From Cymbomonas tetramitiformis (Eukaryota; Chlorophyta; Pyramimonadophyceae; Pyramimonadales; Pyramimonadaceae), in NCBI GenBank assembly GCA_001247695.2, contig LGRX02035268.1:31243-95242 (forward strand): a stretch of DNA of 64,000 nucleotides. The letters are read 5' to 3'. Shown here one piece after another: positions 1 to 20,185 of this stretch. Position 1 is the stretch's first letter. Each line of letters opens with the position of its first letter. The translations under genes and the position numbers were made by a program. The notes below the pieces were generated by a model, which saw only the letters and a program-made list of their open reading frames with translations, was not told the DNA's origin and did no database searches.

Positions 1-186
1 TTGATCGGTTGAAATAATATTCTGTCGTAATATAGTTATAGCCATAATTATACACTGTACAACGACAGTGTATAAATATTCGGGAGAACCGGGGGATAAT
101 GGGAGGCGTCAAGAGCGATTTGGGTCGTGACGCCTGTTCGACGAACCGGTTAGTAGAACTGGGCGATACCTTGACGCGTACCATGG

Positions 187-1081
187 NNNNNNNNNNNNNN
201 NNNNNNNNNNNNNNNNNNNNNNNNNNNNNNNNNNNNNNNNNNNNNNNNNNNNNNNNNNNNNNNNNNNNNNNNNNNNNNNNNNNNNNNNNNNNNNNNNNNN
301 NNNNNNNNNNNNNNNNNNNNNNNNNNNNNNNNNNNNNNNNNNNNNNNNNNNNNNNNNNNNNNNNNNNNNNNNNNNNNNNNNNNNNNNNNNNNNNNNNNNN
401 NNNNNNNNNNNNNNNNNNNNNNNNNNNNNNNNNNNNNNNNNNNNNNNNNNNNNNNNNNNNNNNNNNNNNNNNNNNNNNNNNNNNNNNNNNNNNNNNNNNN
501 NNNNNNNNNNNNNNNNNNNNNNNNNNNNNNNNNNNNNNNNNNNNNNNNNNNNNNNNNNNNNNNNNNNNNNNNNNNNNNNNNNNNNNNNNNNNNNNNNNNN
601 NNNNNNNNNNNNNNNNNNNNNNNNNNNNNNNNNNNNNNNNNNNNNNNNNNNNNNNNNNNNNNNNNNNNNNNNNNNNNNNNNNNNNNNNNNNNNNNNNNNN
701 NNNNNNNNNNNNNNNNNNNNNNNNNNNNNNNNNNNNNNNNNNNNNNNNNNNNNNNNNNNNNNNNNNNNNNNNNNNNNNNNNNNNNNNNNNNNNNNNNNNN
801 NNNNNNNNNNNNNNNNNNNNNNNNNNNNNNNNNNNNNNNNNNNNNNNNNNNNNNNNNNNNNNNNNNNNNNNNNNNNNNNNNNNNNNNNNNNNNNNNNNNN
901 NNNNNNNNNNNNNNNNNNNNNNNNNNNNNNNNNNNNNNNNNNNNNNNNNNNNNNNNNNNNNNNNNNNNNNNNNNNNNNNNNNNNNNNNNNNNNNNNNNNN
1001 NNNNNNNNNNNNNNNNNNNNNNNNNNNNNNNNNNNNNNNNNNNNNNNNNNNNNNNNNNNNNNNNNNNNNNNNNNNNNNNNN
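187..1081. other. Assembly gap (N run)
   Basis: An unresolved run of N. The 186 bases before it and about 180 after it show no gene I recognise. The 3' LTR of the neighbouring minus-strand Ty3 element would be expected near here, so the gap may hide it. Confidence 0.95.
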
Positions 1082-1460
1082 TCTTTTACCCTGTCCTCTT
1101 TCTTGAATAGAGGACAATAAAATGCATACCATCAGTGTGTTCAACAATACAACGATACCCGCCGTTGTCGCAAGAAAGGCACACCCTGCCGTACTTTTTC
1201 GGAGGCGCTTCCTCATGTTTGCAATAACCAAGTGAACCGAGGTGGGGTGGGGGCAAAAAAATTCAAACGGTGATATTAGACGCATATGCATGTGTCACAA
1301 ACCTATTCCCCAAAAACAGATCGAAATTTCTATTCCCCATTTTGGACTTTTCTATTCCTCGATAACCTTTTTTCCCGCGCTTTCCGTCCAGCTGTTTGCC
1401 CCTGTTTTCGTAGGCGGCGAGGTACTGGGGGGAGAGGTCGTCGTCCGGCAATAGGCCTAG

Positions 1461-1598
1461 GCAGCGGGGGCAGTACCAGAATTCTTCGACGGGGACTCGC
1501 GTTAGCTTGGGCTGCAGGCATCCCAGGTGATAGCCCTGATTGCAGTCATCGCAGAGGAGAATGCTGGCGGGGCGATCGGCCTTTTTGCACACCTGGCA
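1461..1598 (-). CDS. PHD finger at the C-terminus of the integrase
   Basis: A complete C4HC3 PHD finger. The pattern is C-x2-C, then LLC-x2-C, then GYH-x2-C, then WYC-x2-C, with the usual Trp just before the last cysteine pair. It follows directly on the SH3-like C-terminal part of the integrase in the same open frame, so it is part of the pol protein. PHD fingers commonly read the methylation state of the histone H3 tail. Chromoviruses carry a chromodomain at this spot, so the PHD finger may steer integration to a given chromatin state; that role is inferred. A short Lys/Arg-rich tail follows before the stop at 1263. Confidence 0.88.
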
Positions 1599-1654
1599 AC
1601 GTGCATCTTCGTTGTCGTCCAGGTTGTAGGTGATGGTGGGGTCGACGTCGGGCA

Positions 1655-2746
1655 AATGGCAGATGGTTATCTGTGAGCAGTGTGCGTTGCAGGTGCTGCC
1701 GCATCGGCCTTGTAGCACGGCGGTGCCGTTGTCGGGCAGCTCTTTAATCTGAAGTATGGGGTCGCGCGTGTGGAGCTGCAGGCCGTGATTCACACTGCGC
1801 TTCAGGAACACGAAGTCGCCTACGCGGAAGTTGAACTGTTTGGGGAGGTACTTCCCTGAGCGCACTTGCGCGTATCGTTCGGTCTGGCGGTGTTGGGCTA
1901 TGGCGATGTTGCTGCCAGCCATGATGGTGGCCCTTTTGACGTACTCGGCGCGTTCGAGGTAGCTGGCTGCCATAGCGGCTGCATCCATGCAGGAATCCAG
2001 CGGTTGGCTGAGGCGCTCCTTGATGGCCGGGGGCAGCGTCGGGCGCTGGGCGTACACGAGCTCATATGGTGCCAGGCGCGTGGACTCCTGCGGCCGCGTG
2101 GCGTTATATCCCAGCATGATCCATGGAAGGAATGAATCCCATCGGTCGATGGACCCAGCCTGCTTGCATGCCTTGGTGAGGGCGGCTTTGGTCATCTGGA
2201 CGATGCGCTCGCTGAGGCCGTTGCTCTGAGGGTGGGATTGCGACGTGGTGCGGTGGTCAATCAGGTTGTCCTTGAGTAGCTGTGCAAACTCCTTTTCCCA
2301 CTCGCGCCACCGTTGTCGGTCACCACCTCAGCTGGGCACCCGAACCTAGCTATGACGTGGAGGGCGAAAGCCTGGGCGGTCTCCGCTGGTTCTTTGGTGT
2401 GCAGAGGGATGAGGCAGACGTATTTGGTGAAGTGCTCCACGACTACCATGACGTATTGGTAGTTGTTCTTGGCCTTGCGGGGCATCTTGGCCAAATCGGT
2501 GGAAAACCGGTAGTACATGCCCTTGACTTCCAGAGGGTTCAGGTGAGGAGCGTGCTTGTCGAAGGTGGTGCGGTAGCGGGCGCAGGCGTCGCACTTGCTG
2601 ACGACGTCGGAGCATGTGTCGTACAGCTTGGGCCAGTAAAACGCGTCTCTTACCATGGCTGCGGTGCGTCGGCAGCCAAAGTGCCCACACCTTTCATGCA
2701 TTTGCTGAACGATGCGGCGTCGCTGGTCCACTGGTGGCACTGGGCG
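1655..2746 (-). pseudogene. Integrase (zinc-binding, DDE core, C-terminal domain)
   Basis: Retroviral-type integrase that would insert the element cDNA into the genome. The N-terminal HHCC zinc domain is visible (H-x4-H, then C-x2-C in a KCDAC context). The core has its first Asp in an STD context, the second in VTDNG, and the Glu in a SNGLSER context (codon 2208-2210), so all three catalytic residues survive. The C-terminal part has the SH3-like pattern of Ty3 integrases, ending in a CHLP motif. A frame change at about 2303-2310, just after the second Asp, breaks the protein. It could be decay or an assembly indel; reading continues cleanly in the next frame. Confidence 0.85.
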
Positions 2747-3402
2747 CCTTGCCCCGTTGGGCAGGATGCGGATCAGGGTTTCTCCTTCGAGTGCGTAGTG
2801 TTGGGCTCGTTTGCTCACGGACGCAAGGAGGGTGGGGTTGCAGGGGCGTTCGCCTCTTAGCCATTGCAGCATCGCCTGGTCGTCGTATGGTTCTGTCGCC
2901 TCGCGCACCTCGGCCGCAGCGCTGAGGGTCCGGGTGACCTTTTCGCTGGGGACGCTGGGTCGAGGGCTGTGGGCCTGTCGTTGAGAGCTTGTGTGGAGTG
3001 CGGGTGTGGGGCCACTGGCGGGTACAAACTGCATGGGGGTGCTGAGGGAGGTGGTTGGGTCGCGTGTTGTGGCGGCGCTCTCACTTGGCGCTGCGCCTAG
3101 CCCGCTCTTGTCGTGGGGTCGTTGACCGCAGCACTCGGGCGGTGGCTGGTGTGCTGCACGTATGAGCGAGGCTGTGGCGCCCGGCCCGTACAGCTGCCGT
3201 AGCTCGGATGTCTCCAACCGGGCTGACCGCTTGATGGTGCTGAGGGCTGCTGCCCACTGGGTTACGATAGCTTCCGGGGGTTCCACGGGTGACTCCTCCC
3301 CCTCCTCGCAGTGGTGGGAGGAGGCCCTGGGCGCGGCATGCTCGGAGATTGAGTGTCTCGACTCAATTTGCAACCGTGGGGCTTCTGCTCGGTTGAGCAA
3401 GT

Positions 3403-4379
3403 AGCATACGGTCAGGATGCGGGAAACGCAGCGGACGTCGAAGGCCCTGCCCAGCATCTCACCTCGCTCGCGCGCTGAGACGCCGGGTGCTTGTGTGGCT
3501 CCGGTCTGGAATCCCATGGCGCGCTCTTTCTCCTCGGGTGTGGGCGGCCCCCACTGCTGTGTGGCGTGATCCCAGACGGTGTCCTTCCTGCCATCCCTGA
3601 ATTGGTAGGAGTCTGGAAAGGACATCATGGTGGGCCACGCCCTCATGGGCTCTCCGTGCACGTTGCAGGGGTAGTGGCCGGAGGCGGTGTCGTCGCCGGC
3701 GTCCTGCTCGGTGCGGCCGGGGTCCAGGATGTCCCTCACGAGGCGACAAGGGTCTCGCTCCACGGCGTCCAGCACGGATTGGGCGTCTACGTACCCGGCC
3801 ATGTTTGTCCAGTAGTTCCGCAGGCGGTGTGCGCGCGCCCCCATGCGTGCTGCGTCGACGGTGATGGGCATACCAATCATGGAGCACATGAGGGGGTGCA
3901 TAACGTCGCGGACCTCACGGCTGTTGAAGTTATGCTGCGCTGCCACGCACTCGATCATGTACGCGAACCTGCCACGCCCCGCCCGAGGAGTTGCAGCTGT
4001 CCCAGCACGCGCACCACGTCGTATAGGACTGACGAGTGCCGACCTTTCAACCCTCGCAGGGACCCAGCCGCTGAGAGGTCCTGGCATTCTGTGCCCACCA
4101 TGGCGAAGATGTACGGACTCTCGTTGCGTCGTTGGTGAGGGATAGAAGGTCACTGCGAGTTATACGTCTGAGATCTTGGAGCACTGAGGTGAAGGCGTCG
4201 TGGAGGGCTTCCAGAGGGAGTTGTTGCGGGAACCGGTTGTGCAGTTGCACTAGCCTGTGTTTGGCAACTTGCCGACTTTTCGCGTTGCTATCGCAGTAGA
4301 CGTATTTGGTGACGTTGCCGCCTGCGATGAGCCATGCCTCCAGACCCGAACACAGGCCTGCGCAGAGCTCTATGACCAC
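3403..4379 (-). pseudogene. C5-cytosine DNA methyltransferase domain within pol
   Basis: Transfers a methyl group from S-adenosylmethionine to cytosine in DNA. Motif I reads VIELCAGLCSGLEAW. Motif IV reads GTECQDLSAAG, keeping the catalytic Cys-Gln though the usual Pro before the Cys is Glu. Motif VI reads ECV where ENV is usual. Then come a VDAARMGARAHRLRNYW stretch, a KERAMGF stretch (motif IX region) and motif X (LGRAFDV). The spacing and the AHR-x2-YW context resemble the DNMT3/DRM branch. The domain lies between RNase H and integrase and reads through three frames, changing near 4.1 and 3.98 kb, so this copy is probably inactive as read. Cytosine methyltransferases captured by retrotransposons have been reported in some algae and dinoflagellates; this looks like such a case. 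Confidence 0.82.
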
Positions 4380-4799
4380 GGCTTCTTTGGCATGGAGGTG
4401 GGACACGGTTCGCTGAGGAAGCGGGCGCGTGTCCAGGCTGGTTGCTTGCCCGTCCACACACTCGCCGCACAGCACCCGGGTGACGGGAACGTGCCTCCTG
4501 CTGCTTAGGTATGCATCCACCCAACCGCATGCCTCTTCCCAGAGCGTCAGCGCATCGTCGTCGCGGGCGTCGTGGTCGCTGGTCTCTACGTGCATGGACC
4601 AGTGCTCCCCCAGGTGGTGGCTGACCAGGTCGTGACTCGTGCAGGGGTCGCCTGGTAGCCTTCCCACATGGCTCTCGTATTGCCATGAGGCTATGGGGGC
4701 GACGTCCTGCGTGCTCTCCTCGGGGAGGCGAGAGTATCGGGCGCAGAGGCAGGCGAAGGCCCCTGCTGTGGGTAGAGCGGCCTCCTCCTCAGTGGGGTC

Positions 4800-5231
4800 C
4801 AGGCTAGCTCCGGTGGGGTCCAGGGACGACTCTCTCGGATATCGAGATAGCACATCAGCGTTGGTGTGGCTGCTTCCAGCCCTGTGCACGATGTTGTACT
4901 CGAACTCCTGCAGGGAGACCTGCCACCGTAGGTGCATGCCGGTCAGGGATTGTGAGGAGCGCAGCCACGTTAGCGGCTTGTGGTCGGTGATCAACGTGAA
5001 TTTGCCGCCATGAAGGTAGTGTCGAAAAGATCTCACGCCGTACACGGCCGCGAGGGCTTCCCCGTAGAAGCTGCTGTAGCGCACTTCGGATCGGGAGAGC
5101 GAGCGGCTGGTGGCTGCGATGATGACGTCACGATCCTCGTCGTCCTTCTGCCCCATTATAGCAGAGATGCCGACCCCTGACCAGTCGGTCATAAGGTACA
5201 GTGGCCGGTTCGGGTCGTAGGCGTGTATGAC
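4800..5231 (-). CDS. RNase H domain of pol
   Basis: Degrades the RNA strand of the RNA-DNA hybrid during reverse transcription. The Ty3-type pattern is clear: a LYLMTDWS start with the first catalytic Asp, a YSSFYGEALA stretch with the Glu, TDHKPL, and a final NADVLSRYP with the last Asp. It follows the RT thumb/connection region once the 280-bp MITE at 5240-5519 is set aside. A linker of about 150 residues, rich in acidic residues, separates it from the methyltransferase. Confidence 0.88.
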
Positions 5232-5239
5232 CACGCCGG

Positions 5240-5519
5240 CAGGGAAGATATCTTACCCCGATTGGCCGGCCCCGGGCCGAACTGAGTCGCCAAAATGAGG
5301 CCCGGGCCGAAGAGGGACCGAAAGAGAAATTGCTTTGGGGCCGAACCAATTTGGCGCAAATTTCTAAAAATTTGATGAAAATTGTGCGATTTTTGCATTT
5401 TCCCATACTTAAGATTAAAATTTTCGGGCATTTTGTAGTTCGGACCGGGCGGGCCGAAGACGGGCCGAAAGAGTTTTTTATTTGGGGCCGTACCAGCTCA
5501 ACGGAAGATATCTTCCCTG
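5240..5519. mobile_element. hAT-like MITE inserted in pol
   Basis: A 280-bp insertion with inverted ends beginning CAGGGAAGATATCTT and a direct 8-bp duplication, CACGCCGG, at 5232-5239 and 5520-5527. CAGGG-type ends with an 8-bp duplication are the mark of hAT elements. It has no coding capacity, so it would be non-autonomous. Removing the element with one duplication deletes 288 bp (96 codons) and puts the end of RT in frame with RNase H. Confidence 0.9.
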
Positions 5520-5527
5520 CACGCCGG

Positions 5528-7648
5528 GCTCAGTGAGCCGCTTTTTGAGCTGGGCCAATGCGTCGTCGTGCTCCTTGCCCCATAAGTCCTTGACGTTCTC
5601 GTTGCCTTTTCTCAGCAGGCAGTACAGCGGCCATGCCATCGACGAGTAGTCTTCCTTGCCGATGCGCGCGGCCATGATCCGGTAGAAGTTCATGAAACCC
5701 AGTATGGCCCGAACGCCCCTCACATCTGTGGGCGTGGGTAGTTCGAGCAGGGCGGCCACTTTGGCCTGGTGAGGTGACAGCTTACCGGGTCGCAGCAGGA
5801 AACCCAGAAACTCGCACCCGCCGGCGGCGAAGACTGACTTGCCGGGGTGACCGCGCAGTCCCACTTTGCTCAGGCGTTGCATGACTGCCTCCAGGTCGGC
5901 CAGGTGTTGGTGGCTACTGCCCGGTGGTATGGTACTGTCACAAGTACCAAAATATATGCTTTATTTTGGGCACTAGATGGGGTGTACGAGTCCCATGAAG
6001 GTTTTGAAAAATCATTTAGGACCCTTTTGAATTGTTATTGATGCTGAAATGTACTCTCGTGAACTTTAGGTATGTGTATGTGCGGTGTGCTTTTGGGGGG
6101 TGTAACGCCATAAAATTAATTAAATTTGCTGGTACTGTCACAAGTACCAACCGCGCGGTGATTTAAAAGGGCACGCTATGTGGCCACGAGGTGGCATGCA
6201 TGATGTCACATTTCATTATTGGGATGTATCCTAAGGGCTCGTCATGCGTTGTGCCATTTGAACGTCTTTAACGCCAGTATTGGGATTCGATAACACCCAA
6301 GGGTGTGATAAAATGGCCTCTCAGCATTTTTTGTAGTAATATCGGGAGCGGTTTCGTACTTAAGTTCCATGTGTAGAGTCCAAGTACGGCAACTTCTCAT
6401 GCATGTAAAGGTCTTGAAAAATCGATATATGGGTTTACTTTTGATGTCATAAACGCTGGTGAGGCGATCCGACGTTATAATATACTTATTTCGTAGCTTT
6501 AGTGCCACGACTAAGCTCCAAAATCGACGATAGCCCTCATACTTAAGGAATCTTGAGTTGGACCATTTGGTGGAGATGGGATGTTTAGCATGTCGCAGTT
6601 TCAGCGACGGGCAGTATGCCAACTGCCCCATGCCCACATTCATCATTGGCCATGTTATACAGCTTCAATTTGAGCCATCGCTGGGTTGAATAGAATCCCA
6701 AGTCTGTTCAAAAAGAAATCCGAAAGTAGCGCCACGATTTCGAAGACAAGTGAGACACCATTGTGTAACACAAAACTCCACCTTGTTGGCAATATGCATC
6801 CACTGGGAGGGCTACACGTAACCTATGGACCAATGGGGCATAATACAACTCAGTTTGGGTCGTTAAGGTAATGGTATATCATGGATATCACCATCGGGAT
6901 GGAGGAGGACATCAAAAAAAATTCTAGCGTTTTGGTACTTGTGATAGTACCAGATTCGATTCTGGTACTATGACTAGTACCACTGGGCAGTAGCCATTGG
7001 CGGGCGGTGGGCGAGGTCACCAGGATGTCGTCGCAGTACACCTTGGCGCAGCTGAGTCCGCGCAGCTCGTGCTCGATTACCCGCCCAAACATTGCGGTGC
7101 TGTTCGCGCTGCCGAAGGGCATGCGCTTGTAGACGTACTGCTCGGGGGCGGCACCGTCTCGCGCCCACCAGAAGCATGTCTTCAGCGACGCGTCGTCGGT
7201 CAGAACGATCTGGTGGAAACCGCTGCGCAGGTCCAGCTTGGTCATGTACTGGTCGCGGCCGATGTCGTGAAAAAGGTCTTCGGGCAGCCGTGGAGGCGTA
7301 CGGTCTCGGAGCGACAGCTCGTTGACGCCTCGTAGGTCCAGCGCCACACGCTTGTCCCTCCAGGAGCCATCCATGCAAGGCCTTTTTCATGGCGACGACG
7401 ACATTGCAGGTGTTTTCGCAGTATTTCGGGGCCTTCTCGATGATGCCGTCCGCCAGCAGCTTGTTGAAGTGTTCGTCGATCAGAGCCCGTTCGGCTGGTG
7501 AGAATCGCCGGGGCTTCTGGTAGTGCGAGGCGGACTCGTCCTTGAAGGGAATGTCAAATTTGCCGATCTCTCCCGTGTATCCCGGCAGGTCGGTGGCGGA
7601 GGTGGCCATGAAGCTCTTCTCGCGGAGTAGGAGGTCGCGCAGGGCCTG
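5528..7648 (-). pseudogene. Reverse transcriptase, split by a DNA transposon
   Basis: Ty3-type RT. The N-terminal half (about 7648-6997) has the entry region GIIEKAP, a K-x2-MDGSWR stretch, ALDLRGVN, a TKLDLRSGFHQI palm motif with the first catalytic Asp, and the active-site box YCDDILV (Cys replaces the more common Leu/Ile/Val before DD). The C-terminal half (about 5906-5528) has the thumb region with a CEFLGF motif and an ILGFMNFYR stretch. A 1086-bp transposon lies between them; the codons on either side are in the same frame once it is removed with one 4-bp duplication. One more frame change near 7.39 kb separates KK from MDGSWR. Confidence 0.87.
5911..6996. mobile_element. 1.09-kb DNA transposon of unknown class, copy 1
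   Basis: The ends are inverted copies beginning TGGCTACTGCCC, flanked by a 4-bp direct duplication TTGG at 5907-5910 and 6997-7000. Near each end and again inside are short palindromes of the GGTACT...AGTACC type. A second copy lies in opposite orientation at 31584-32672. The longest reading frame inside (6242-6646, minus) matches no family I know, and no transposase motif is visible. A 4-bp duplication is seen in several superfamilies (Sola and Ginger among others), but the end sequence does not let me choose. Confidence 0.88.
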
Positions 7649-7651
7649 TCA

Positions 7652-8374
7652 TTCTTCATCGGTCCATGCGCCCTCGCCGTTGAAGCCTGCTTGAGGCCCC
7701 ATGATGACGTCCAGTTCCTCGTCACGGGCGTGCAGCGCTTCGACGTCGTCTTCCCTGCCGAGAGGCACGGCGCTGTCCACCTCGCCCGCCTGTGTGGCGA
7801 ATGCTTGCGCCAGGTGGTGCTGCCGCGGCTTCTTGCGCCGCTTGCGACCCCTGCGGGCATGGCGTCGTCCTTTTGCCTTCCTGAAGCTGGCTCGGCGCCA
7901 CAGATCGTGGGATGATGGTGCCCCGCGGCCCTGACGTTTATTCCGCTTACTGGCGCGTTTGAAGCGGCTGGGGGGGTCCTCGCACTTTGGGTTGAGGACG
8001 ACGAATCGCATGATGGCGTTGGTGTTGACCAGGCGGAATCGTGTCCACGAGTATACTGTCCCCGCTGCCGCCGCCGCCGCCGCACACCAGCTGGGTGTGC
8101 TCCTCCATGCTTCTGTTGCCACGAGCCTGGCCGTCTCCACAAGCACGTGTGGCCCCACGCTGTTGGCCTGGACCGTTGTGAAGATGGTCCAGGCTGCTAA
8201 TGCGCAGCCAAGCTGCACGCACGCTCGCTGTACCCATGTGCGGGCAAGGAGCTGCAGTGCTGCTTTGGCCTGTTGCTGAGCCCGCCGGTTGCGCCTTCCA
8301 GCGGACTTGGGCACTGGGCCCCAGGCCTGGGTGAGTGCCCACCTCATCCGGGCGCTAAGGGACCGCTCCACGAG
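7652..8374 (-). CDS. Basic linker upstream of RT
   Basis: Between the last membrane-rich module and RT, in the same frame as both, with an in-frame TGA at each side (8375-8377 and 7649-7651). The N-terminal half has one moderately hydrophobic segment and a poly-Ala run. The second half is very Arg/Lys-rich (RRGRKRRKK type), a possible nuclear localisation or nucleic-acid-binding stretch. Past the TGA at 7649 the frame continues into the RT region. I recognise no domain. Confidence 0.5.
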
Positions 8375-10102
8375 TCATAACAGCGGGGGGAGGTTCAGGG
8401 AGAACCTCCGTACTGCCCGCCACGTCGCCTCTAGGAGCAAGACGCTGACCGCCGTGTGGTGCACTGTAGCTGACCTGACCCACTGGACCACCAGCACCCC
8501 AATGGCCCAGGATGCCATTCCCTGCGTTGCGCTTGCGGCTGCCCCCGTGGCTGCTGCGATTATGATGGCCGTGGTGTATTCCAGATGCCATGAGCCGGGT
8601 GTCCATAGGCAGGGCGTGACGGAGACCAGTGCGTATGCGCTGGCCCACACAATGCTTTCTGCGCTGAACCCTTTCGCCCACATGGTGGAGGCTGTGACCA
8701 GCCCCACAGTGACGACGATGTTGGTGGGGGCGTGTGGCGTTGGCGACGCGGTTGTGGCGTTGGCTGCGGTGGTGAGTGTCGGTGTGTGGGCTTGTTCGCG
8801 GCGTGGCAGGGAGGTTGCGTTAGGCTTGAGTTGTACCGCGGGGAGCTCCGACTTGTTACACGCGGGGTCGGTTGGGGTGGTTGTGGCGCTGTGGCAGCTG
8901 GGTTGAGTGGTTGTTGTCGGGCTTGGCGTGTTGGGGGTTTTGCCGCTGAATTGGGATTGCCCGTGGTGGTGTGTGGGTTTTTGAAAAAAGATAGGTCTGG
9001 TGGTACCGCTTGCCCAATCTGCTTCTGTCGTGCTTGGTGATGTATTATTTCCCCCCCCCAGCAACGGGAGGAGAGGCTGCGGCTCGACAGATGTTGGTGG
9101 CAGGATAAGGAAGTGGTTTGCAGGTGCAGGGGAGTTGCGTATGATTGTGGAATGGGACAGGGGTGTGGTGGGGCCTGCGAGGGACAAAATGCACAGGATG
9201 GTGGTCATCAACCCGATGTGCCGGTGAATGGGGGATGATCGGGGCCTGCGTGATGGCGCTCTTACAGCTTGAGGTGCGGGGCGGCCACGCGCATCGGCAG
9301 GTGCGGGTGGTGCGACAGGTACGGGCTGATCGCTGTGGTTTGGTGGCGTATCCTGTGTGGCCGGGGCTGCACGACTGCATACGCGGGTGGATACGCTGCG
9401 TGCGTAGTTGTGATTGGTTGTGTGAGTGGGGGTGAAGGTGGAGGGAAGCTGCGTGTGTGCTGTTGCTGCCCATCTTGAGCCGTTTGCTCTGAATCGTCGT
9501 AGCGTCAATGGCTGGAATCCATTTGTGACTTTGACGGTGTTGATGTACATGAGCTCAGTGGCGTCGCGAATGAGGGTCTGATTTTCCGGTCGTGTATCTC
9601 CCTCGAGGATTTTGCATGGTGAGTAACCACGCAGAACGAGGTCGCTTCGCGTCCCTGACACCGCGCAGCGGTTGGGGAGAAATCGGTGGTAGGGGCGATT
9701 GATGGTGATCCCGCAGAATGGACAATCGCTGTTTCGCGCGGTGTTGCGTAGCGGGCGCTGACGTGTGGTGGTGGGTGGGGTGCGTGGATGGTTGTTGATG
9801 GGTGGGGATGTGGCCACTGGATTGGGATGGGTGTTTTCGCGGCCGCTGGGGCGCGTGTGCAGCACGCGCGGGATGTGGTCGGGGAGTTGGTGCGAGTGGT
9901 CAGGGCTTTGGGGTGTCGGGGTATTGTCCGCGACAATGTGGGATGATGAGGTGGAGGTTGTGTCGGGGGTGGTGGCAGTGGAAATGTGGGGGCGGACGCC
10001 TGCTGTGTGGTATGAGTGGGGTGTGGGAGAACGAGTGTCGAGTGATGCTGCCGCTGCTGTGGGGTTGGTGGTGGTGGCGAAATGCTCGGGGTGGTGGTTG
10101 GG
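8375..10102 (-). CDS. Module D: zinc-domain copy plus several membrane segments
   Basis: Open in one frame from the TAA at 10103 to a TGA at 8375. Near 9488-9724 it has a diverged copy of the zinc domain shared with gag (C-x2-C, a later Cys, then a TxGFQPLTLRRF tail matching the others). A long Thr/Pro-rich stretch follows, then about four hydrophobic segments in the last 150 residues, likely membrane-spanning. The function is unknown. An envelope-like or membrane-anchoring role is a guess from topology alone. Confidence 0.55.
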   Translation of the reverse strand, partial: PNHHPEHFATTTNPTAAAASLDTRSPTPHSYHTAGVRPHISTATTPDTTSTSSSHIVADNTPTPQSPDHSHQLPDHIPRVLHTRPSGRENTHPNPVATSPPINNHPRTPPTTTRQRPLRNTARNSDCPFCGITINRPYHRFLPNRCAVSGTRSDLVLRGYSPCKILEGDTRPENQTLIRDATELMYINTVKVTNGFQPLTLRRFRANGSRWAATAHTQLPSTFTPTHTTNHNYARSVSTRVCSRAAPATQDTPPNHSDQPVPVAPPAPADARGRPAPQAVRAPSRRPRSSPIHRHIGLMTTILCILSLAGPTTPLSHSTIIRNSPAPANHFLILPPTSVEPQPLLPLLGGGNNTSPSTTEADWASGTTRPIFFQKPTHHHGQSQFSGKTPNTPSPTTTTQPSCHSATTTPTDPACNKSELPAVQLKPNATSLPRREQAHTPTLTTAANATTASPTPHAPTNIVVTVGLVTASTMWAKGFSAESIVWASAYALVSVTPCLWTPGSWHLEYTTAIIIAAATGAAASATQGMASWAIGVLVVQWVRSATVHHTAVSVLLLEATWRAVRRFSLNLPPLL

Positions 10103-11248: not shown

Positions 11249-11848
11249 ACTGCTGTCGGAAGGCCACGTGCGTCAGAGGTGCCTGACCGGCGGTGACCCT
11301 CCCGGTGTTGACGACGAGCATGAGGAGCGGCATCAGGTGGGAGGGGACCTTGCCGTCGCGGACCCATCGGGTGTAAAGTCCGGTGCCACCGCTAAGGTGG
11401 CATGCGTGGGGTCTGTTGGCGCCTCGGCACGTTCCGCTGTTGCAGAACTGACACGCTGATGCCTGGGGGTTCCTGTGCCAGGGTGCGAGGGAGAACAGCG
11501 TCGAGGGTTGGCATGGTGGGCTGGCTCTGAAGTGGGCGAACGGCCAGGCATGGGGGTCGCCTTGCTGGTGTCCGCGCCACTTTATGACAGCCGCCATGCC
11601 GGCGGCGATCGCGCAGCCAAGGCTGATGATGGTCAGCAGGGTGGTGGTGACGCTGGAGTAGGGGCTGCCATAGCGGTCCGGCTCCTCGTTGTGGGCCTGA
11701 GCGGGGTTGATACAGGCGGCCAGAAGGAGGAATACAAGGAGCTTTGCGAGGGCCGGCTGGAAACAGCCGGTGCGGCGGGGCGTTGTTGACGACCGGCGTG
11801 GGTTGGTGTGGGCAGCTGCCAAGTCGTTCAGGTGGGCCGTCCATTCTG
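11127..11848 (-). CDS. Module B: two membrane segments followed by a zinc-domain copy
   Basis: In frame order this follows the protease, but the frame changes inside a run of 11 C (11849-11859), a likely slip or assembly-error site. After it come a signal-like hydrophobic segment ending in PAQA, a loop with several acidic residues, a second membrane helix, and then the zinc domain (11244-11453): C-x2-C, Cys-His-Leu-Ser-Gly, RWV-x2-GK, and the GQAPLT tail. The order (membrane, membrane, zinc) complements module C, so the run reads as a chain of alternating units. Confidence 0.58.
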
Positions 11849-13401
11849 CCCCCCCCCCCGAATTGTGCTGACGGCCTCGGTGCGGTGTTGTGGTCCTTGA
11901 ACACCTTGAGGGGCAGGTAGGCCTTGTGCACGAAGTCGCCTCGTTGGTTATGGGGGTGGTAGGCCAGAGCTGCACCGCGCTCGGGTGTGGCGGGCAGCAC
12001 CCCTGCGGACATGGCGTGCAGAATGTCTACGGACAGCAAGACGTCGAAGCTCACGTGAGCTGAGGGGCTGATGCCGGTTACGTCGGCCAGCACCATTTCG
12101 TTGGAGGTGCCGGGGGCGATGACGAGCATTAGCTCTCCAGTGCCCCACTGGCGGTGCTGCTGTGTCCCCCCGCTGCCCATGCTGGTGTCCACGGTGGCCG
12201 TGCTGGAGTGCACCTTGAGGCCCAGGGTCTCCTGGTGCACCTTGTTCATAACGAACAGCATCGAGCCGGTGTCCACGATCATGACGGACAGGGTCAGGTA
12301 TTGCCCCGTGCGCTGGCTCATGACGAGGATGGACTTCTTCGGGTCGTCGTTGCACAGGGTGTAACATACGGCTGTGCGCGTGAACCAGTTGTTCATGTCG
12401 GGGCTCATTTCCTCGAACGCTTTGCTGGTAAGGCGCTGTAGCTCTGCTGGGGGTACTTGTTGGTGGTTGGCCGTGGTGGTGGACATGGCCGCGGAGAGGC
12501 TCTGAGGGGGGTTGTCGTGGTCCTCCTCGAGCCAGTCGTTGGTTTTCATGAGCACCATCGCAGGGGCAGCGGAGGGTGGATTGGCGATTTCTTCCTCCCT
12601 GCCCCGTACGGCGACGGGAGCGGCCGGAGTGGGTGGCGGCGTGCTGCCCGTGCGACGGAACGACGCAGGGATGTGGCGGTGATTAACCATGCTGCGGGCC
12701 ATGTAAGAGTGGTGGTGGAGAGGATGCATCTCGATGGGTGGTGTGGGGGGCCAAGGTGCGTCGCTGCCGGTTGTGCTCTCAGGATTCTCGTGACATTCAT
12801 CGTACCCTTCGGTGTCGCTGCCGATGTCATCATCGCTGGTCACGAGGTCGATGACGCTGCGGGGTGGCTGCCAATTTTCGGGGTTCTTACGGTGCACCAT
12901 GCAGCACGTTGGGAGGCCGTATTGGTCATGGGCATGATTATAACAGCACACCCGGGCATTGCCTATTCTCATGGGCTTGCCGTCGGGTCCCGTAGGGTAT
13001 TCCGCCCACTCGAAGTGGATGACGGCGTATGCTATGTCGAATGTGTTGACGGGCGCGTTGCCGTCGGGCACGTGGCGGCGCAGGGCGTTGGACATGGCAG
13101 ATTCCTCACGCGCCACTCGCTGCTCCCGCGTCAAGGCGGGTGGCGACATCGCGTCGGAAACGGCGTCATCGCGGCGAGGTGAGGGTGGTGGGCTGTCTGG
13201 GGCTCGGGTGACCAGGTGCCGTGTGATGACGGGGCTGTCGGGTGATGGAGACGGGCTTTTGGGACCAGCGGGGTAATCCTCGGGGTAGCGGTCAGGGTAG
13301 TGCTCAGGGATTTCGTCGGGCGCAGGGCTGGCAGGCAGGGGAATACCAATATTGGGTTGGAGTGGGGCTGGTGGGGGAATATGGAGGGCTGTCTGGGCCA
13401 T
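11849..13401 (-). CDS. Aspartic protease region of the Ty3 element
   Basis: Processes the polyprotein. The active-site motif is IVDTGS (residue about 377 of the open frame), followed downstream by a hydrophobic-Gly-x-D-like stretch (FDVLLSVDIL) typical of retropepsins. The first 370 residues are Pro/Ser-rich with a small Cys/His cluster (CCYNH ... CCMVH) that may bind zinc. The frame overlaps the end of gag by 98 bases and lies one base forward, so a +1 frameshift like that of Ty3 would join them; this is inferred. The frame formally runs on to 11392, but sense is lost at the C run at 11849. Confidence 0.78.
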
Positions 13402-15094
13402 GCCTTTTGGGTGAGCGAAGGGGACTGCTGGGGGCTTCGTGATGATCGGGTGACTGCGCCCCTTCCTCGTCGTGGGGAGCGGGGTGTGCGTCGGTGGTGG
13501 GGTTGCTCGTGCCCCTCAGGAAGGGGTTGCCGTGCTCCATGATGGCAGCGTATGATTGGAAGTGAACGATGGTGTCCGCTGGCGCTGCATCGTTGGGCGT
13601 GGCTTCGGCGAGGCGGGTGCTTTGCTGCCCAACGTGGTGAGAGCGTCGCGTGAGGGGCGGCACGCTGTGGTAGTCGTAGGACTGTGCTTGCCACGTGGGT
13701 TCGTTGCCAGCGGGGACAGCGTGGTTGGAGGAGCTGGGGTTGCCCTTGCTGCTGCCGAACTGCTGGTCAAATTCTACCTTGGTCCACGGTCTCTGGCCCT
13801 TGGCGACGCGGTCGTAATTCACGATCAGCATGTTCATCAGGGGTCGTAGTGCGACAGGCATCTTTCCCTTATTGACCCATTGGTCGTATAAGGTGGTCTT
13901 GCCGCTTATGTGGCAGGGCAGCGTGGGGCTATGGAAGAGGTGCAGTGGCCTATGGCAGAAGGTGCAGTCGCCGTTGGGCCCGCCGAGGTTGTCGCTGCAC
14001 ACGGTGTTCGGCGTGCGGGGAGTGGCTGCCGCGGGCTCCGTGTTGAAGGAGGAGGTTGATGCCTGGCGCGTGATCTGACCCAGAAGCTTCCGTCCAGCGG
14101 GGTTGAGTCCGGACGGGTCAAAGTCGCTATCCGCGGTTCGCGGAGCCGGCAAGCGGAGGCGCGGGCTGACGCTCCTGGTGGTGGAGGTGCGTGGGGGAAT
14201 CAACGGCGGGGAAGGCAGACCGAGGTTGTGCTTGTTCTGGCCGGTGATCAGCATGTCGGCCAATGTGGACTTGGTGGGCCCCTCTGCGTACGCCCCCACG
14301 TACTGGACCAGATTTTGCTGTTCCAGGTTTGCCTTCATGATTTTTGTCTCCATGGCTTTCAGTCTGGTGTGCACGTCCTGCGCGACCTCGGTCACCTCGG
14401 CGAGCGTGTACTCCTCGGTGACGTTCATAGCCTTGCTGAACCGCTCTCGGACGATACCCGCGAGGTGCTTGGGCAACGCTTGCAGCATGAACAGACCGGC
14501 CGTCTGGGGGTTGATCACTTTCTGCGTCGAGTCGTGGGGCAGGTTGACGCGATCCATGAGCCTTACCAACCGGTCCTTGAGGGCGTTCGGGTCCTCGCTG
14601 GCCAACATCTGCAGGTTCTTGATCTCTTCCTGGGCGGCCTCGGCGGACAAGTCTGCGCACTTCAGCCTCAGGAGGAAGAACAGTACGCGCCATGCGGCGT
14701 CCCAGTCGATGACCTGGCCGGTCAACACCTGGAAGGGGTCTTCACGTGGGAATGTGAGGGGCTCGCACATGTACCCGGTCTGCGGAGGGTACAACTCGGT
14801 CTCCTCCAAGATCAGCTGAGGCAACGTCTTGCTTGCGCTGTTGGGAGCCAGTACGAATCGGCTGACGGCGCGGGTGGCGTCCTCCGTGCTGTTGAAGATG
14901 GCGGGCAGGGAGCCGAATAATGTGCCTTTGGGCGTGTTGACCTCGTCGCGCGTGAGTTCCACGTTGCGGTTCGTGTTCTTTTCGAATACGAGGTTGCTGA
15001 GGAACGCGCTGAGCTCATTGGCCGGATCGGTGAAATCGCCGTTGGACATGTTGCTCTTGGTGATGACGGGCAGTGACTTTGGTTTGGAGGTCAT
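13304..15094 (-). CDS. Gag-like capsid protein with a C-terminal zinc domain
   Basis: 596 codons, starting at the first ATG after the tandem array. Residues about 110-260 have the helical capsid pattern of Ty3 gag proteins, including a LPKHLAGIVRERF stretch followed by a TLAEV helix. In place of a CCHC knuckle there is a different zinc-type domain at residues 377-447 (13754-13966): C-x2-C, then a Pro-Cys-His-Ile-Ser-Gly core, DQWV-x-KGKMP, and a GQRPWT tail. This domain recurs in modules B, C and D downstream. The C-terminal 130 residues are Pro/Ser/His-rich. It is the first gene of the element. Confidence 0.78.
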   Translation of the reverse strand: MTSKPKSLPVITKSNMSNGDFTDPANELSAFLSNLVFEKNTNRNVELTRDEVNTPKGTLFGSLPAIFNSTEDATRAVSRFVLAPNSASKTLPQLILEETELYPPQTGYMCEPLTFPREDPFQVLTGQVIDWDAAWRVLFFLLRLKCADLSAEAAQEEIKNLQMLASEDPNALKDRLVRLMDRVNLPHDSTQKVINPQTAGLFMLQALPKHLAGIVRERFSKAMNVTEEYTLAEVTEVAQDVHTRLKAMETKIMKANLEQQNLVQYVGAYAEGPTKSTLADMLITGQNKHNLGLPSPPLIPPRTSTTRSVSPRLRLPAPRTADSDFDPSGLNPAGRKLLGQITRQASTSSFNTEPAAATPRTPNTVCSDNLGGPNGDCTFCHRPLHLFHSPTLPCHISGKTTLYDQWVNKGKMPVALRPLMNMLIVNYDRVAKGQRPWTKVEFDQQFGSSKGNPSSSNHAVPAGNEPTWQAQSYDYHSVPPLTRRSHHVGQQSTRLAEATPNDAAPADTIVHFQSYAAIMEHGNPFLRGTSNPTTDAHPAPHDEEGAQSPDHHEAPSSPLRSPKRHGPDSPPYSPTSPTPTQYWYSPACQPCARRNP

Positions 15095-15136
15095 GTTGGC
15101 GGTTCAACCCCTGCACACGCCGCCCTCACCCCTTTA

Positions 15137-15770
15137 AGTTCCAGAATTTTTTATGAGCGGTTTAGCGCTGCCTGCGCTGCTGATAACCACGCCCGTGGTC
15201 AAATCCTGAAATTTTCAGGAGCGGTTTAGCGCTGCCCGCGCTGCTGATAACCACGCTCGTGGTCAAATCCTGAAATTTTCAGGAGCGGTTTAGCGCTGCC
15301 CGCGCTGCTGATAACCACGCTCGTGGTCAAATCCTGAAATTTTCAGGAGCGGTTTAGCGCTGCCCGCGCTGCCACCAATCCTGAAATTTTCAGGAGCGTT
15401 TTAGCGCTGCCCGCGCTGCTGGATAACCACGCTCGTGGTCAAATCCTGAAATTTTCAGGAGCGTTTAGCGCTGCCCGCGCTGCTGGTAACCACGCTCGTG
15501 GTCAAATCCTGAAATTTTCAGGAGCGTTTTAGCGCTGCCTGCGCTGCTGAAACCACGCTCGTGGTCAAATCCTGAAATTTTCAGGAGCGTTTTAGCGTGC
15601 CGCGCTGCTGGTAACCACGCTCGTCGTGGTCAAATCCTGAAATTTTCAGGAGCGTTTTAGCGCTGCCCGCGCTGCTGGTAACCACGCTCGTGGTCAAATC
15701 CTGAAATTTTCAGGAGCGTTTTAGCGCTGCCCGCGCTGCTGGTAACTACGCTCGTGGTCAAATGGAAGTG
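15137..15770. repeat. About ten tandem copies of a 62-63 bp unit
   Basis: Each unit contains two short dyads: TCCTGAAATTTTCAGGA (one central mismatch) and ACCACGCTCGTGGT. One unit lacks the second dyad. The array sits just upstream of gag, where the element's leader or LTR should be. The bases just after it (GAAGGTCGA...CAGGGTGTCA, about 15770-15800) recur at about 16540-16565. Confidence 0.9.
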
Positions 15771-15834
15771 AGAAGGTCGAATTCAGGGTGTCACACGTCC
15801 TAAAAATCAAGCTTCTGAGTTGAAACGCGCGTTT

Positions 15835-16480
15835 CCGGCGATGCGCGCATTTCAGGCGATGCGCACATTTCAGGCGATGCGCACATTTTAGGCGATGTGC
15901 ACATTTCAGGCGATGCGCACATTTCAGGCGATGCGACATTTCAGGCGATGCGCGAGTCTCAGGCGATGCGCACATTTCAGGCGATGCGCGCGTTTCAGGC
16001 GATGCGCACATTTCAGGCGCTGCGCACATTTCAGGCGATGCGCACATTTCAGGCGATGCGCACATTTCAGGTGATGCGCCTATTTCCGGCGATGTGCACC
16101 TTTCAGGCGATGCGCGCGTTTCAGGCGATGCGCACATTTCAGGCGATGCGCACGTTTAGGCGAGTCGAGCGTTCCGGGTGATTATACGTGTTTCAGGCGC
16201 CAGGCGCATTGCAGCGAATCGAACATTTCATGCGACGCGCCAATTTCGTGCGAAGTGCGCCCTTCGGGTGAATCCTGCCTTTCAGGCGACGCGTGCCACC
16301 TTGGTGAAACGTGCCATCCGAGCGAAACGCGCCTTTCAGACGGTGTGTGCCTTTCAGGAGATGCGCGCCGTTCAGGCAAATCGGGCGTTTCAGGAAAGGC
16401 GCGAACTTGGCAGCGAAACGAGCACTTCAGGTGATACACGCGTTTCATTGACGTGAGCATTTCGGGCAAGTGCGCATTTC
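15835..16480. repeat. 18-bp tandem array, degenerate at one end
   Basis: About 18 clear copies of AGGCGATGCGCACATTTC from 15835 to about 16170, fading into diverged copies up to about 16480. It lies between the two copies of the short flanking sequence named for the previous array, so it may have expanded inside the older repeat. Reading frames across it encode only a repeated hexapeptide and are not genes. Confidence 0.85.
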
Positions 16481-16921: not shown

Positions 16922-17251
16922 CGCGGGCTTAAAACGGGGCGGGGTCAGCGGAAAACTCAGAGAGGTATTTCAAAATCAATGGAATGTGGAAGGTTCAGAA
17001 AACTCGGCAGAATCCTTGCAAAGGCTCAACTTTGGGAATTTCAAAAGTGCACGTGGCTGTCTGTGCATCCCCAAAGGCCTTGACGGGCAACCTGACGAAA
17101 AAGGTGCCTGGTCAGCGAGGAAATCCCCAAAGGGGAAAGCCAGAAGGAGAGCTTCGCAGCGAAAGTTGAGTGGGCTGGTGGGCAGGACTCTGAAAGGGAA
17201 GCCCAGGTCCAGCGGCCAGCAGAGACCAAATTCACAGCTCGCTCGAGCGGG

Positions 17252-20185
17252 TTGAAAGAGTTGAACTCAGCCCCCGAGCCGGACCGACCAGCCCGAGTGG
17301 GAATGCACAAAGCAGGCAACGGCAGTCGGCACAGAGGTCACAGAGGTCGACTCAGTCCACGTCAGCAAAAGTACCCAGTCGGACGATGTTTGAGAATTCA
17401 TGTTGTTCGTGCAGAGGTTGAGTGTGGTAAATCCACTCGGCAGTCATACAGCCGGAAAGCGCGTGAATGCGCACTCGAAAGCAGCAAAAAGGAACCCGGA
17501 AAGAAAAGCGGCTGTTTCTTTGACGTCCGAAAGGTCGTCAAAGGTGTTGAGCTGGGACGTCGGGTAAAGCAGCCGAGCTTAGCCGAGTTGGGCGAATACG
17601 AGGAAGTAGTAAACGTGTATGTTTACTTTGGTGACCTGGCTTTGCGGAATCGAGTCCTTCTGTCAGCTACAATTTTCAAGGTACAAGCTTGTAATCTCTT
17701 CACCCAAACCCTCAAGAGCTTTGTTACGAATAAATCCGCGCACAATCACGCAACTCTAAAGAGTCTTGTTAAACTCTTTCTTTTCATCTTGCATTTTGAC
17801 TCTAGAAAGCTGGGAAAACCAGACATAACTGAAATTAACTCAGTGGGGAATTCGCTAACTGTAATTAACGCGCATCTCGCACAGAATTGTAGCGACCTGT
17901 TCTACGTGGCGACAAGGGAAGGAGAGCAAGTAGTGCTAGTTGCTGGCGCGAGCGACGTGGCCAAGAAGATTCTTTCCGCCACGAATTCTGAACTGACCGT
18001 CGAGCACCTGAAGAATTGTGGAGAACAGCTGGTCGACTATGACCAGTATTCGCGTGTGCTGGAGGCTGCTGCCAACATTTTCAAAGACATCTCTTCAGGC
18101 GAGCACGACACGAGGAGTGAGCATTCGCTCTTAGTGGAGTCATTCGCAGAGGCAGAAGCTCAAGGACACTGCCTCGAAAGCGTCACCTGATACTGGAGTG
18201 GAGCCACCACCTGAACCAGCGTCAGCACCTCTCTCACCGGCAGAGGATCGCACTCCACCTGAGGTAAGCTTAAATTATATGCACACACACTTGCATTCCC
18301 ACGCGTGCAAGCTCAGAATAGCGTCCCATTCTTTTGGCGCATCACAGGAGCCAACGGGTATGCAAGACTACGAAGGGGGTGACGAATTTGACCTCTCTGC
18401 TTTCGACGAAGCAGAAGAATTCGAAAAACTCGACAAGGAGCTACAAGAGACCGACGATTGCGACACCGACGACGAAGACGGTGGTCTCAGCAACGACGAC
18501 TTTCTAGCATCTGTTATAGTCAAAAGGCTGGGCGCATTGACCGCAGGACCGTTCACAGAGCGCGAGATTTCCGAAGTAAACAGACTCCTGAAAGCGGTGT
18601 TACTTCAAGCTCAAAAAACAGTTGCAATTTTGAGTGTGGAAGGAAAGAAGTACCCCAACAGCGCTACCCCTTTCCTGCACGTGAAAGTTGCCTCAATCGA
18701 GGAAGCCAGAGTGCTAGTTGAATACGCTGTCGTGGTAGTTGGCAATCAAGACTTTCTCATCACACCAAAGAGCAGCAAATTAAACAGCATCACGATAGGA
18801 TTCAAGTCACTCAGGGCGGGGAAACAACCGAAGCTGACCCACATCCTTGCTCACATCAGAGCCTCACCTTTCTCGAAGTTCATCAAAGAAGTCACATCCC
18901 AACAAGCTTTCACAGTTCACAGCAGAGTGCGTGGAGCAAAGCGGCGTTCGAGATTGGTCAGACAGATCTTTGTGCTTCTGAAACCGGGACTGGGCCGTCA
19001 CCCGGAGCCTGCTAAGATTGACAAAAAGAAAATCGAGCACGCCCTGTATGCTCTTCCATTGGAATACCACTGGTCAGGCCTAGGAACGGCCTTCATCTCA
19101 AAGTGCTCAGCTCTAATTTGCCGTGAGTGTGAGGGTAAACTGCCAACGGTCACAGCACCAAGAGCTGCCCGGCCAGGATTTACGGTGCGAGATCTCCCAA
19201 CGTGTCAGTCCCTCGAACCGCAGCGGCAGCAGCAGCAGCAGTGCCAGACGAGACTTCAATCCCACCAGGATTTGGGGAGGGCTCCGGCCAGGACACAACA
19301 GCTCAAACCGCAGCAACCCTGGCATCTCTGAGGCACGGAGGGCATCCTCCAAACTGCAAGTGCACGGCCTGCCAGAAAGGTGAAAGAATCTCCACCCTCT
19401 TCCATTGCAAAAACATCATTAACTTTTCCATTGAGCTCTGCGATGTTGAAATTCAACTCTGTGATCGAAAACTCTTCACATTCTCTCAGGGAAAAAGAGA
19501 GCCCTCGCTCAGATCAAGCCATCGCCAAGCCCCGGGGACCGTAAGAAGAGCTCCGGACAAGGCAGATCAGAACAACTCAGCGAGATTGCACAGGCTGAAG
19601 GGGCAGAACTGCAAAACAGGTGCACTGCTCTGCAAGATATGGACTTTAAAATCTAAATCCCCTGACTTCCTTTGTCTCAGGCTTTCAATTCTTACCTGCA
19701 CTTCAAGACCCGAACAACATCTCACGGTGTCTGATACAATAGTTCACAGTATGCAACTCAGAAAGGGTTTACTTTCCTCACACTTTCTTCTCTCCCAATC
19801 CTCTTCTCTAAGTAAGAGCAGAGCATATGATAATCATGCTAAGTGTACATGCCCGTGCTGTCTGTCCTGTGCTTACTACTCATTTCTTCAGCATCGCTTT
19901 CCTAGCTCCCTGTTTGGATTAGAAAACCTCACACATGTGCTCTTTCAAATTCCCTCCCTCACCTGTTATGACAAAACCGGGAATGATATTGACCCTAAAC
20001 TGGGGCCCAATACCACAATTCAACTAACAGATAGCCCTAGCACTTCATATGCCAACTTTACCTGGCAACATGCCAACTTAAGACAGCGGTCTGATAACTC
20101 AACGCGGTGCTCAGACAACTTCAAACAGTCCGCAAATAACTATACTCGGCCCAAAGTTACCCTACGTACCTCGTTTTGTAGATAA
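17252..20185 (+). CDS. Spliced gene of unknown function
   Basis: No family recognised. The first open stretch runs to a TGA at 18188-18190. A second begins at 18198, or is reached by a frame change near 18150-18190. Downstream are four introns with good GT-AG ends and consistent phase: 18264-18347, 19135-19208, 19380-19489 and 19620-19680. The joined protein has an acidic segment (about 18360-18490), a mixed alpha/beta-looking middle, two Cys patches (CREC and, after the second intron, HPPNCKCTACQK), a poly-Ala run, and a Lys-rich segment after the third intron. The Cys/His patches could bind zinc. The last exon is less convincing. It could be a host gene or the first gene of a retroelement. 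Confidence 0.5.

What the first reader, a model, noticed from the sequence alone, without database searches (positions are those of the whole stretch)
3403..4379. Cytosine methyltransferase embedded between RNase H and integrase of a Ty3-type element
Motifs I, IV, VI, IX and X of a DNMT3/DRM-like C5 methyltransferase lie in the right order inside pol, and the catalytic Cys-Gln is kept. The element could methylate DNA, perhaps its own copies. Retrotransposon-borne methyltransferases have been reported before, so novelty would lie in this host, this position in pol and the pairing with a PHD finger.
Basis: partly seen in the sequence, partly recalled or inferred. Interest (0 to 1): 0.88.

Follow-up and report, generated by a model that had tools for sequence, protein, structure and literature searches.

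The report
DNA-methylating domain inside algal retrotransposon
An abundant jumping gene of a marine green alga carries, between its copying and inserting enzymes, a cytosine DNA methyltransferase related to animal DNMT3; the copy in this window is broken, but other copies keep an unbroken frame and selection appears to preserve the enzyme.

Summary
On the minus strand, window 4379-3398 encodes a DNMT3-like C5 methyltransferase (MTase) between RNase H and the DDE integrase of a Ty3-type element of the prasinophyte alga Cymbomonas tetramitiformis; a PHD finger follows. This copy is dead: two frame changes inside the MTase, nested insertions in pol. Of 103 scored genomic matches, 21 lie in uninterrupted frames of at least 2,200 aa. 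In 15 copies with an open MTase frame it is under purifying selection (median dN/dS 0.10; RT+RNase H 0.18, linkers 0.19 and 0.29). Metagenome proteins 35-45% identical show the same order (RT-RNase H-MTase-IN-PHD in one 1,766-aa protein), so this is an old lineage, not a chance fusion. Unexpected: Pro-Cys of motif IV is Glu-Cys in 13 of 17 members compared; the ends are split repeats (A-coding-B-A-B), as published for the nearest precedent, KnitGypsy-Dnmt3; intact Cymbomonas pol ends with a Tudor-like and a possible second MTase domain. DNMT-bearing retrotransposons are known since 2018, and a high-copy cytosine MTase was mentioned for Cymbomonas in 2015: a new variant of a known kind. Catalytic activity and purpose are untested.

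The parts
16981..17587 (-). 5' terminal repeat A1 (607 bp part of it)
   Evidence: 81% to the A2 repeat near the 3' end of another copy (L022 7599-8219)
15130..16293 (-). untranslated leader with two tandem arrays (about 64-bp and 18-bp units)
13304..15103 (-). gag-like ORF (599 aa, no Pfam hit)
   Evidence: DNA 80% to the gag-pro ORF of another copy (L024)
11392..13515 (-). ORF with weak aspartyl protease match
   Evidence: PF13650 E 0.0047
6991..8347 (-). pol start and first part of reverse transcriptase (two frames)
   Evidence: tblastn with P0032/P0034
5910..6997 (.). nested insertion interrupting reverse transcriptase; second copy at 31583-32673
   Evidence: 97.3% identity over 1092
5520..5942 (-). 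second part of reverse transcriptase
   Evidence: 82% to P0032
5253..5513 (.). short nested insertion between RT and RNase H, gaagatatctt on both sides
   Evidence: sequence
4782..5252 (-). RNase H
   Evidence: PF17917 E 1.3e-28
4128..4379 (-). C5 methyltransferase, motif I piece
3991..4125 (-). C5 methyltransferase, motif IV piece (GTECQDLS), other frame
3398..3982 (-). C5 methyltransferase, motifs VI-X piece, third frame
1716..2818 (-). integrase: H2C2 zinc domain, DDE core and C-terminal part (two frames)
   Evidence: PF17921 E 9e-15, PF00665 E 1e-7; DDE spacing D-x59-D-x34-E read in another, open copy
1461..1598 (-). PHD finger
   Evidence: PF00628 E 2.1e-11; nearest solved structures UHRF2/UHRF1, DPF2, KMT2C/D, CHD4
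1081..1355 (.). edge of what looks like another nested insertion (187-1081 is N); the 3' end of this copy continues outside the window at G000:C25084:27720-28778

Best explanation
Shown: this is a decayed copy of a multi-copy Ty3-type retrotransposon lineage whose pol polyprotein has the order RT - RNase H - DNMT3-like C5 methyltransferase - DDE integrase - PHD finger, with, in the Cymbomonas copies read to the end, a Tudor-like and a C-terminal MTase-like stretch after it. The MTase diverges in step with the rest of pol and is under purifying selection no weaker than RT plus RNase H. Inferred: after reverse transcription the MTase, held in the same complex as the cDNA and integrase, methylates cytosines of the new DNA copy, so that it enters the genome already carrying the host's silent or 'self' mark, while the PHD (of a type mostly reading the unmodified histone H3 tail) and Tudor-like domains steer integration to suitable chromatin. 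The element gains tolerance or protection. The window copy itself makes none of this.
For: Order in open Cymbomonas pol frames and in metagenome proteins P0034, P0025, P0031, P0033, P0039. DNMT3A best among solved structures; 17 retro-MTases form one clade, 100/99, next to DNMT3A, 92/88. MTase identity between pairs mostly tracks that of IN and RT. MTase dN/dS 0.09 over 90 pairs of 14 copies, 0.10 over 105 pairs of 15 copies; PHD 0.04, Tudor-like 0 N against 91 S differences pooled, C-terminal domain 0.09-0.11. Precedent: SymbioDIRS-Dnmt3 domains methylate CG in yeast (PMC5890265).
Against: No activity data for this family; KnitGypsy-Dnmt3 gave no methylation in yeast, called inconclusive by its authors. 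Motif IV lacks the usual Pro. CpG o/e is not clearly lowered. Genome searches rank close copies first, and the query held part of the MTase, so copies lacking it could have been missed. dN/dS used copies chosen for open frames, and pairs are not independent. One pair does not track (P0032-P0020: RT+RNase H 59%, MTase 86%; both are gene models with gaps).
Confidence: 0.55

Rival explanations
1. The MTase is no longer a methyltransferase: it kept the fold for SAM or nucleic-acid binding, a scaffold in the pol complex or an RNA chaperone, which would explain the Glu-Cys motif IV.
For: ECQ replaces PCQ in 13 of the 17 retroelement MTases of the tree (letters) and in 15 of 15 open Cymbomonas copies.
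Against: Catalytic Cys, Gln, the motif VI Glu and the AHRLRxxW motif are kept in the alignments made; motif X varies a little (2 of the 14 comparable copies differ by one residue). P0033, P0038 and P0039 keep PCQ.
Confidence: 0.2
2. The domain methylates RNA (element RNA or a tRNA primer) rather than DNA.
For: No clear CpG depletion; same suggestion made for SymbioLINE-Dnmt (PMC5890265).
Against: Best matches are DNMT3A/B, not DNMT2 (E 0.11); DNMT2 falls in the other half of the tree.
Confidence: 0.12
3. Chance or assembly artefact: a host MTase gene fragment lying next to retroelement debris.
For: The window copy is broken and nested.
Against: The same order in 20 of 20 loci inspected, these being the window, its identical twin contig and 18 others, in long open frames, and in metagenome contigs.
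Confidence: 0.01
4. The MTase silences the element or rivals (self-limitation or superinfection exclusion), lowering harm to the host.
For: Self-limitation is offered as a possibility for DNMT retrotransposons in PMC5890265.
Against: Many similar copies with open frames (21 of 103 scored matches at 2,200 aa or more; 9,440 first-look candidates) suggest little restraint.
Confidence: 0.12

Closest known systems
KnitGypsy-Dnmt3 of Klebsormidium nitens (de Mendoza et al. 2018, PMC5890265)
   Same: Dnmt3-type MTase, unpermuted, inside Pol of an element with Gypsy domains; intronless; Ka/Ks below 0.2; terminal repeats arranged as in DIRS (legend of Fig. 4c; the DIRS plan A-coding-B-A-B is in the legend of Fig. 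1e), the arrangement found here.
   Different: Charophyte host; 'PHD' occurs 0 times in the main text, and no Tudor or second MTase domain is mentioned in the parts seen; exact position in Pol and motif IV letters could not be read (figure and supplements not held).
SymbioDIRS-Dnmt3 and SymbioLINE-Dnmt of Symbiodinium (same paper)
   Same: Retrotransposon-borne C5 MTases under purifying selection; DIRS type active in yeast.
   Different: Tyrosine-recombinase DIRS or LINE elements, not Ty3 with DDE integrase.
Repeat-associated cytosine DNA methyltransferase of C. tetramitiformis (Burns et al. 2015, PMC5741210 section 20)
   Same: Same species; among scaffolds with over 10,000x coverage one encoded a cytosine DNA methyltransferase, attributed to repeats; very likely this family (inference).
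   Different: One sentence in the section seen: no element, architecture, family or selection analysis.
Chromoviruses (Ty3 elements with integrase chromodomain)
   Same: Ty3 pol with a chromatin-reading domain after integrase.
   Different: Reader here is PHD plus Tudor-like; an internal C5 MTase.
Animal DNMT3A/B
   Same: Motif order and best sequence match of the catalytic domain.
   Different: Glu-Cys in motif IV; embedded in pol; no ADD or PWWP match among the Pfam hits of the pol frame.

Membership tests
C5 cytosine methyltransferase | Motif I, IV (Cys), VI (Glu), VIII, X in order | tested here: met
   Pfam cut-off passed by 7 of 20 relatives scanned
C5 cytosine methyltransferase | Pro-Cys dipeptide of motif IV | tested here: not met
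   GTECQDLS in the window and in 15 of 15 open copies; of 17 tree members 13 ECQ, 3 PCQ (P0033, P0038, P0039), 1 SCQ (P0025)
C5 cytosine methyltransferase | Methyl transfer to cytosine | not testable with these tools
   needs an assay
DNMT3 | Nearest to DNMT3 among C5 MTases, unpermuted | tested here: met
   DNMT3A E 2.2e-15, HhaI 1e-6, 4onj (labelled DNA methyltransferase, recalled as a DRM) 3e-6, DRM2 4e-4, DNMT2 0.11; tree 92/88 with a long-branch warning
DRM | Permuted motif order (VI-X before I-V) | tested here: not met
   motif I precedes IV, VI, VIII, X
Ty3/Gypsy | RT-RNase H-integrase order, DDE integrase with H2C2 | tested here: met
Ty3/Gypsy | Plain identical LTRs at both ends | tested here: not met
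   A1-coding-B1-A2-B2 in C11344 and C12376; B1/B2 pairs also in C18784 and C9611, whose 5' ends are off the contig
DIRS | Split terminal repeats | tested here: met
   as above; 2 copies with both ends, 2 with the 3' end only
DIRS | Tyrosine recombinase in place of DDE integrase | tested here: not met
   rve integrase with D-x59-D-x34-E
KnitGypsy-Dnmt3 | Sequence kinship with the Klebsormidium element | not tested
   no Klebsormidium protein was named among the hits; searches capped and word-limited

The most novel reading that the evidence does not exclude
Cymbomonas elements encode, in one 2,208-aa pol, two methyltransferases of different classes (a DNMT3-like C5 enzyme with a derived Glu-Cys catalytic motif, and a C-terminal class-I, N6-adenine-like domain) together with PHD and Tudor-like chromatin readers: a self-contained epigenetic writer-reader module travelling with an integrase, in an element with DDE integrase but DIRS-like split repeats.
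Probability: 0.35. Interest if true: 0.82.

Novelty: new variant of a known kind. Interest (0 to 1): 0.64.

Why it matters
It widens retrotransposon-borne DNMT3 from charophytes and dinoflagellates to a chlorophyte and to several unplaced metagenome sequences, with an element that has many copies and open frames in an alga for which nanopore data exist. That makes a standing question testable: why would a transposon carry the enzyme hosts use to silence it? The conserved Glu-Cys motif also tests what the motif IV proline is for.

Tried and rejected
DRM kinship: rejected, motif order is not permuted. Chance fusion or artefact: rejected. Bacterial, phage or viral origin: scans of viral contigs, one scan of prokaryote genomes and a phage tblastn with the C-terminal domain gave no relative; this covers only those collections and those patterns. 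CpG depletion as a trace of self-methylation: not seen. Plain LTRs in the window: none found in 1-20000; the answer came from other copies. The C-terminal MTase-like call rests on weak matches: PHROG DNA methyltransferase E 0.006-0.008, PADLOC MTase_II 0.075 and mad2 0.024, PDB N6-adenine methylase E 1.5 (below an unrelated hit at 0.72), and no Pfam or NCBIfam hit. Genome searches with P0034, P0036 and the motif VI-X piece did not complete; a search with RNase H alone was planned and never sent. Selection sets: one search used 14 copies; it left out L001, L002, L005, L008-L011 and L016 (frame not open over the domain), L012 (open over part) and L020 (open, but my motif X pattern missed it), and picked 4 of its 14 by a motif IV pattern. 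One search repeated it with L012 and L020 in, the tandem twin L027 out and no motif IV criterion (three copies were picked by AHRLRN): MTase 0.10 instead of 0.09, RT+RNase H 0.18 instead of 0.16.

Full report
Setting. The window (G000:C25084:31243-95242) comes from Cymbomonas tetramitiformis, a prasinophyte green alga (Chlorophyta, Pyramimonadophyceae): the nearest named proteins are CYMTET_*, and the 852-Mb assembly size is near the published 914 Mb (PMC10675990, passages seen).

What is in the window. A retroelement runs on the minus strand from about 17587 to 1355. tblastn with relatives lays out pol start and RT (8347-6991 and 5942-5520), RNase H (to about 4782), MTase (4379-3398), integrase (2818-1716) and PHD (1598-1461) in this order. 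The copy is dead: the MTase lies in three frames; insertions at 5910-6997 (a 97% copy sits at 31583-32673) and 5253-5513 break pol; a further insertion left of 1355 separates the 3' end, which lies outside the window at C25084:27720-28778. A second contig (C1152) is identical over 4,203 bases, so it gives no independent check on whether the frame changes are real.

Is it a C5 methyltransferase? The broken window ORFs reach no Pfam MTase match. Of 20 relatives scanned, seven pass the DNA_methylase cut-off (P0025, P0026, P0027, P0031, P0033, P0035, P0038), five match below it (P0020, P0024, P0029, P0034, P0039) and eight show none at the limits used; an open Cymbomonas frame matches at E 0.25 only. 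PHROG DNA methyltransferases match P0026 at 3.9e-16 and the Cymbomonas domain at 2.6e-6. A profile of six relatives finds DNMT3A at 2.2e-15, DNMT3B at 3e-14 to 1e-9, HhaI at 1e-6, 4onj (labelled DNA methyltransferase; recalled as a DRM) at 3e-6, DRM2 at 4e-4 and DNMT2 at 0.11, and lists nothing called DNMT1. In a tree of 27 rows, 17 retroelement MTases form one clade (100/99) next to DNMT3A (92/88); the program warns of long branches there, and one environmental MTase (P0041) joins just outside. Motif order is that of DNMT3.

A family, not an accident. The third protein search (only the 8,000 candidates sharing most words were scored) found P0034, one 1,766-aa metagenome protein with RT, RNase H, MTase, H2C2, rve and PHD; P0031 and P0033, like P0025, with MTase-integrase-PHD; and P0039, with RT-RNase H-MTase, ending inside the MTase. 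P0038 has a related MTase upstream of RT, so the domain has also moved. Pairwise identities of MTase (35-56%, 15 pairs) and integrase (36-63%, 15 pairs) are alike; of 6 pairs with RT+RNase H, five are alike too and one is not (P0032-P0020, 59% against 86%). An integrase tree did not resolve the metagenome members.

Copies in the genome. The answered search with the RNase H-MTase ORF scored 103 of 9,440 candidate places (a lower bound): 21 rows lie in open frames of at least 2,200 aa, 15 of them exactly 2,208. All 20 loci fetched (the window, its twin and 18 others) carry MTase sequence after RNase H, in 3 of them only part of it within the stretch; the query itself held the first part of the MTase, so this does not test for copies without it.

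Selection. In 15 copies with an open MTase frame (one of them over part), median dN/dS was 0.10 for motifs I-X (105 of 105 pairs), 0.18 for RT+RNase H (43 pairs, 10 copies), 0.19 for the RNase H-MTase linker (105 pairs) and 0.29 for the MTase-integrase linker (66 pairs, 12 copies). An earlier set of 14 gave 0.09, 0.16, 0.19 and 0.29. Pairs are not independent, and open frames were chosen; the contrast within the same copies is what counts. The 10-90% ranges overlap for MTase (0.06-0.17) and RT+RNase H (0.08-0.32), not for MTase and the downstream linker (0.23-0.48).

Motif IV. The window and 15 of 15 open copies read GTECQDLS. Of the 17 tree members 13 read ECQ; PCQ stands in P0033, P0038 and P0039, and SCQ in P0025. 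That Pro-Cys is nearly invariant in C5 MTases is recalled knowledge. A conserved Glu beside the catalytic Cys under purifying selection suggests altered chemistry or loop geometry (inference).

Ends. In C11344 a repeat region A1 (64072-62508) precedes the coding region; B1 (46722-46596) follows pol; then A2 (46292-45036) abuts B2 (45035-44909, 99.2% to B1 over 127 bases). There A1 and A2 cover different, overlapping parts of the full repeat and share 544 bases at 98.7%. In C12376 A1 (1-2715, at the contig edge) and A2 (19911-22620) are 98.1% identical and B1/B2 87%. C18784 and C9611 show B1/B2 at 96% and 95%, with 5' ends off the contig. True 5' ends are uncertain, and no target-site duplication was recognised at the C11344 ends. 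This A-coding-B-A-B plan is what de Mendoza et al. describe for KnitGypsy-Dnmt3, as 'the same as that of a DIRS retrotransposon' (legends).

Beyond the PHD. Pol of the four copies read to the end (L022, L023, L029, L032) continues for about 370 residues: a Tudor-like stretch (PF21743, E 0.048, below cut-off), a loose spacer, then a domain with WDPYAGTG, SSDINP and TSPAF that weakly matches DNA methyltransferases. pN/pS: integrase 0.04 and PHD 0.04 (6 pairs each), Tudor-like 0 against 91 pooled synonymous differences, spacer 0.35, C-terminal domain 0.11 (10 pairs each, the window copy's remnant included), and 0.09 among 13 open copies, picked partly by a motif. A genome search with it scored 150 of 2,789 candidates, a good part of them at the end of frames of about 2,208 aa. 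It was found in none of the 65 proteins in hand; P0028 reaches past the Tudor-like part only. The predicted metagenome proteins end before it.

PHD. Nearest solved structures are UHRF2, UHRF1, DPF2, KMT2C/D, CHD4, BAZ2B, ATXR5 and PHF21A; that most of these read the unmodified H3 tail is recalled.

What is in print. PMC5890265 (abstract, first two of seven parts, sections 9-11 and 15, passages): DNMT3 in DIRS elements and another DNMT in LINEs of Symbiodinium, DNMT3 in Gypsy of Klebsormidium. PMC5741210 (section 20 and passages): one sentence on a cytosine MTase among over-10,000x scaffolds of Cymbomonas. PMC12344493 (passages) recalls the 2018 cases. PMC9998398, PMC9861306 and PMC12220804 (passages) added nothing on this element. 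Searches brought up, in the titles and abstracts listed, no description of this element or of an MTase-PHD Ty3 pol; the held library lacks most subscription papers.

Noticed in passing
5910-6997 and 31583-32673: Two 97% identical copies, in opposite orientation, of a roughly 1.1-kb repeat with inverted ends (ctggtactgtcacaagtacca-like), probably a non-autonomous DNA transposon.
   Followed up: partly
5253-5513: Short insertion flanked by gaagatatctt on both sides.
   Followed up: no
15130-16293: Two adjacent tandem arrays (64-bp and 18-bp units) in the element's leader, between terminal repeat and gag.
   Followed up: partly
29515-30789: ORF with a DEAD/DEAH helicase domain (Pfam E 1e-17), RecQ-like by eye, not near the element.
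   Followed up: no
25329-26906: Reverse transcriptase ORF of another retroelement (RVT_1 E 1e-6, just under its cut-off).
   Followed up: no
22000-22482 and 22689-23801: The same peptide (TAFGRSPHRIAGAVRAY...) is encoded on both strands a few hundred bases apart: an inverted duplication.
   Followed up: no
47099-48628: ORF with EF-hand domains, likely a host gene.
   Followed up: no
P0031 residues 404-438: A metagenome relative carries a G-patch domain between MTase and integrase (Pfam E 3e-7), as some retroviral proteases do (recalled).
   Followed up: no
P0038: A relative of this MTase, with canonical PCQ, lies upstream of RT in a Ty3-like pol: domain position has shifted at least once.
   Followed up: partly
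G000:C12376 (L021, L022, L027, L028): A roughly 12-kb stretch with pol and terminal repeats is duplicated in tandem at 99% identity.
   Followed up: no
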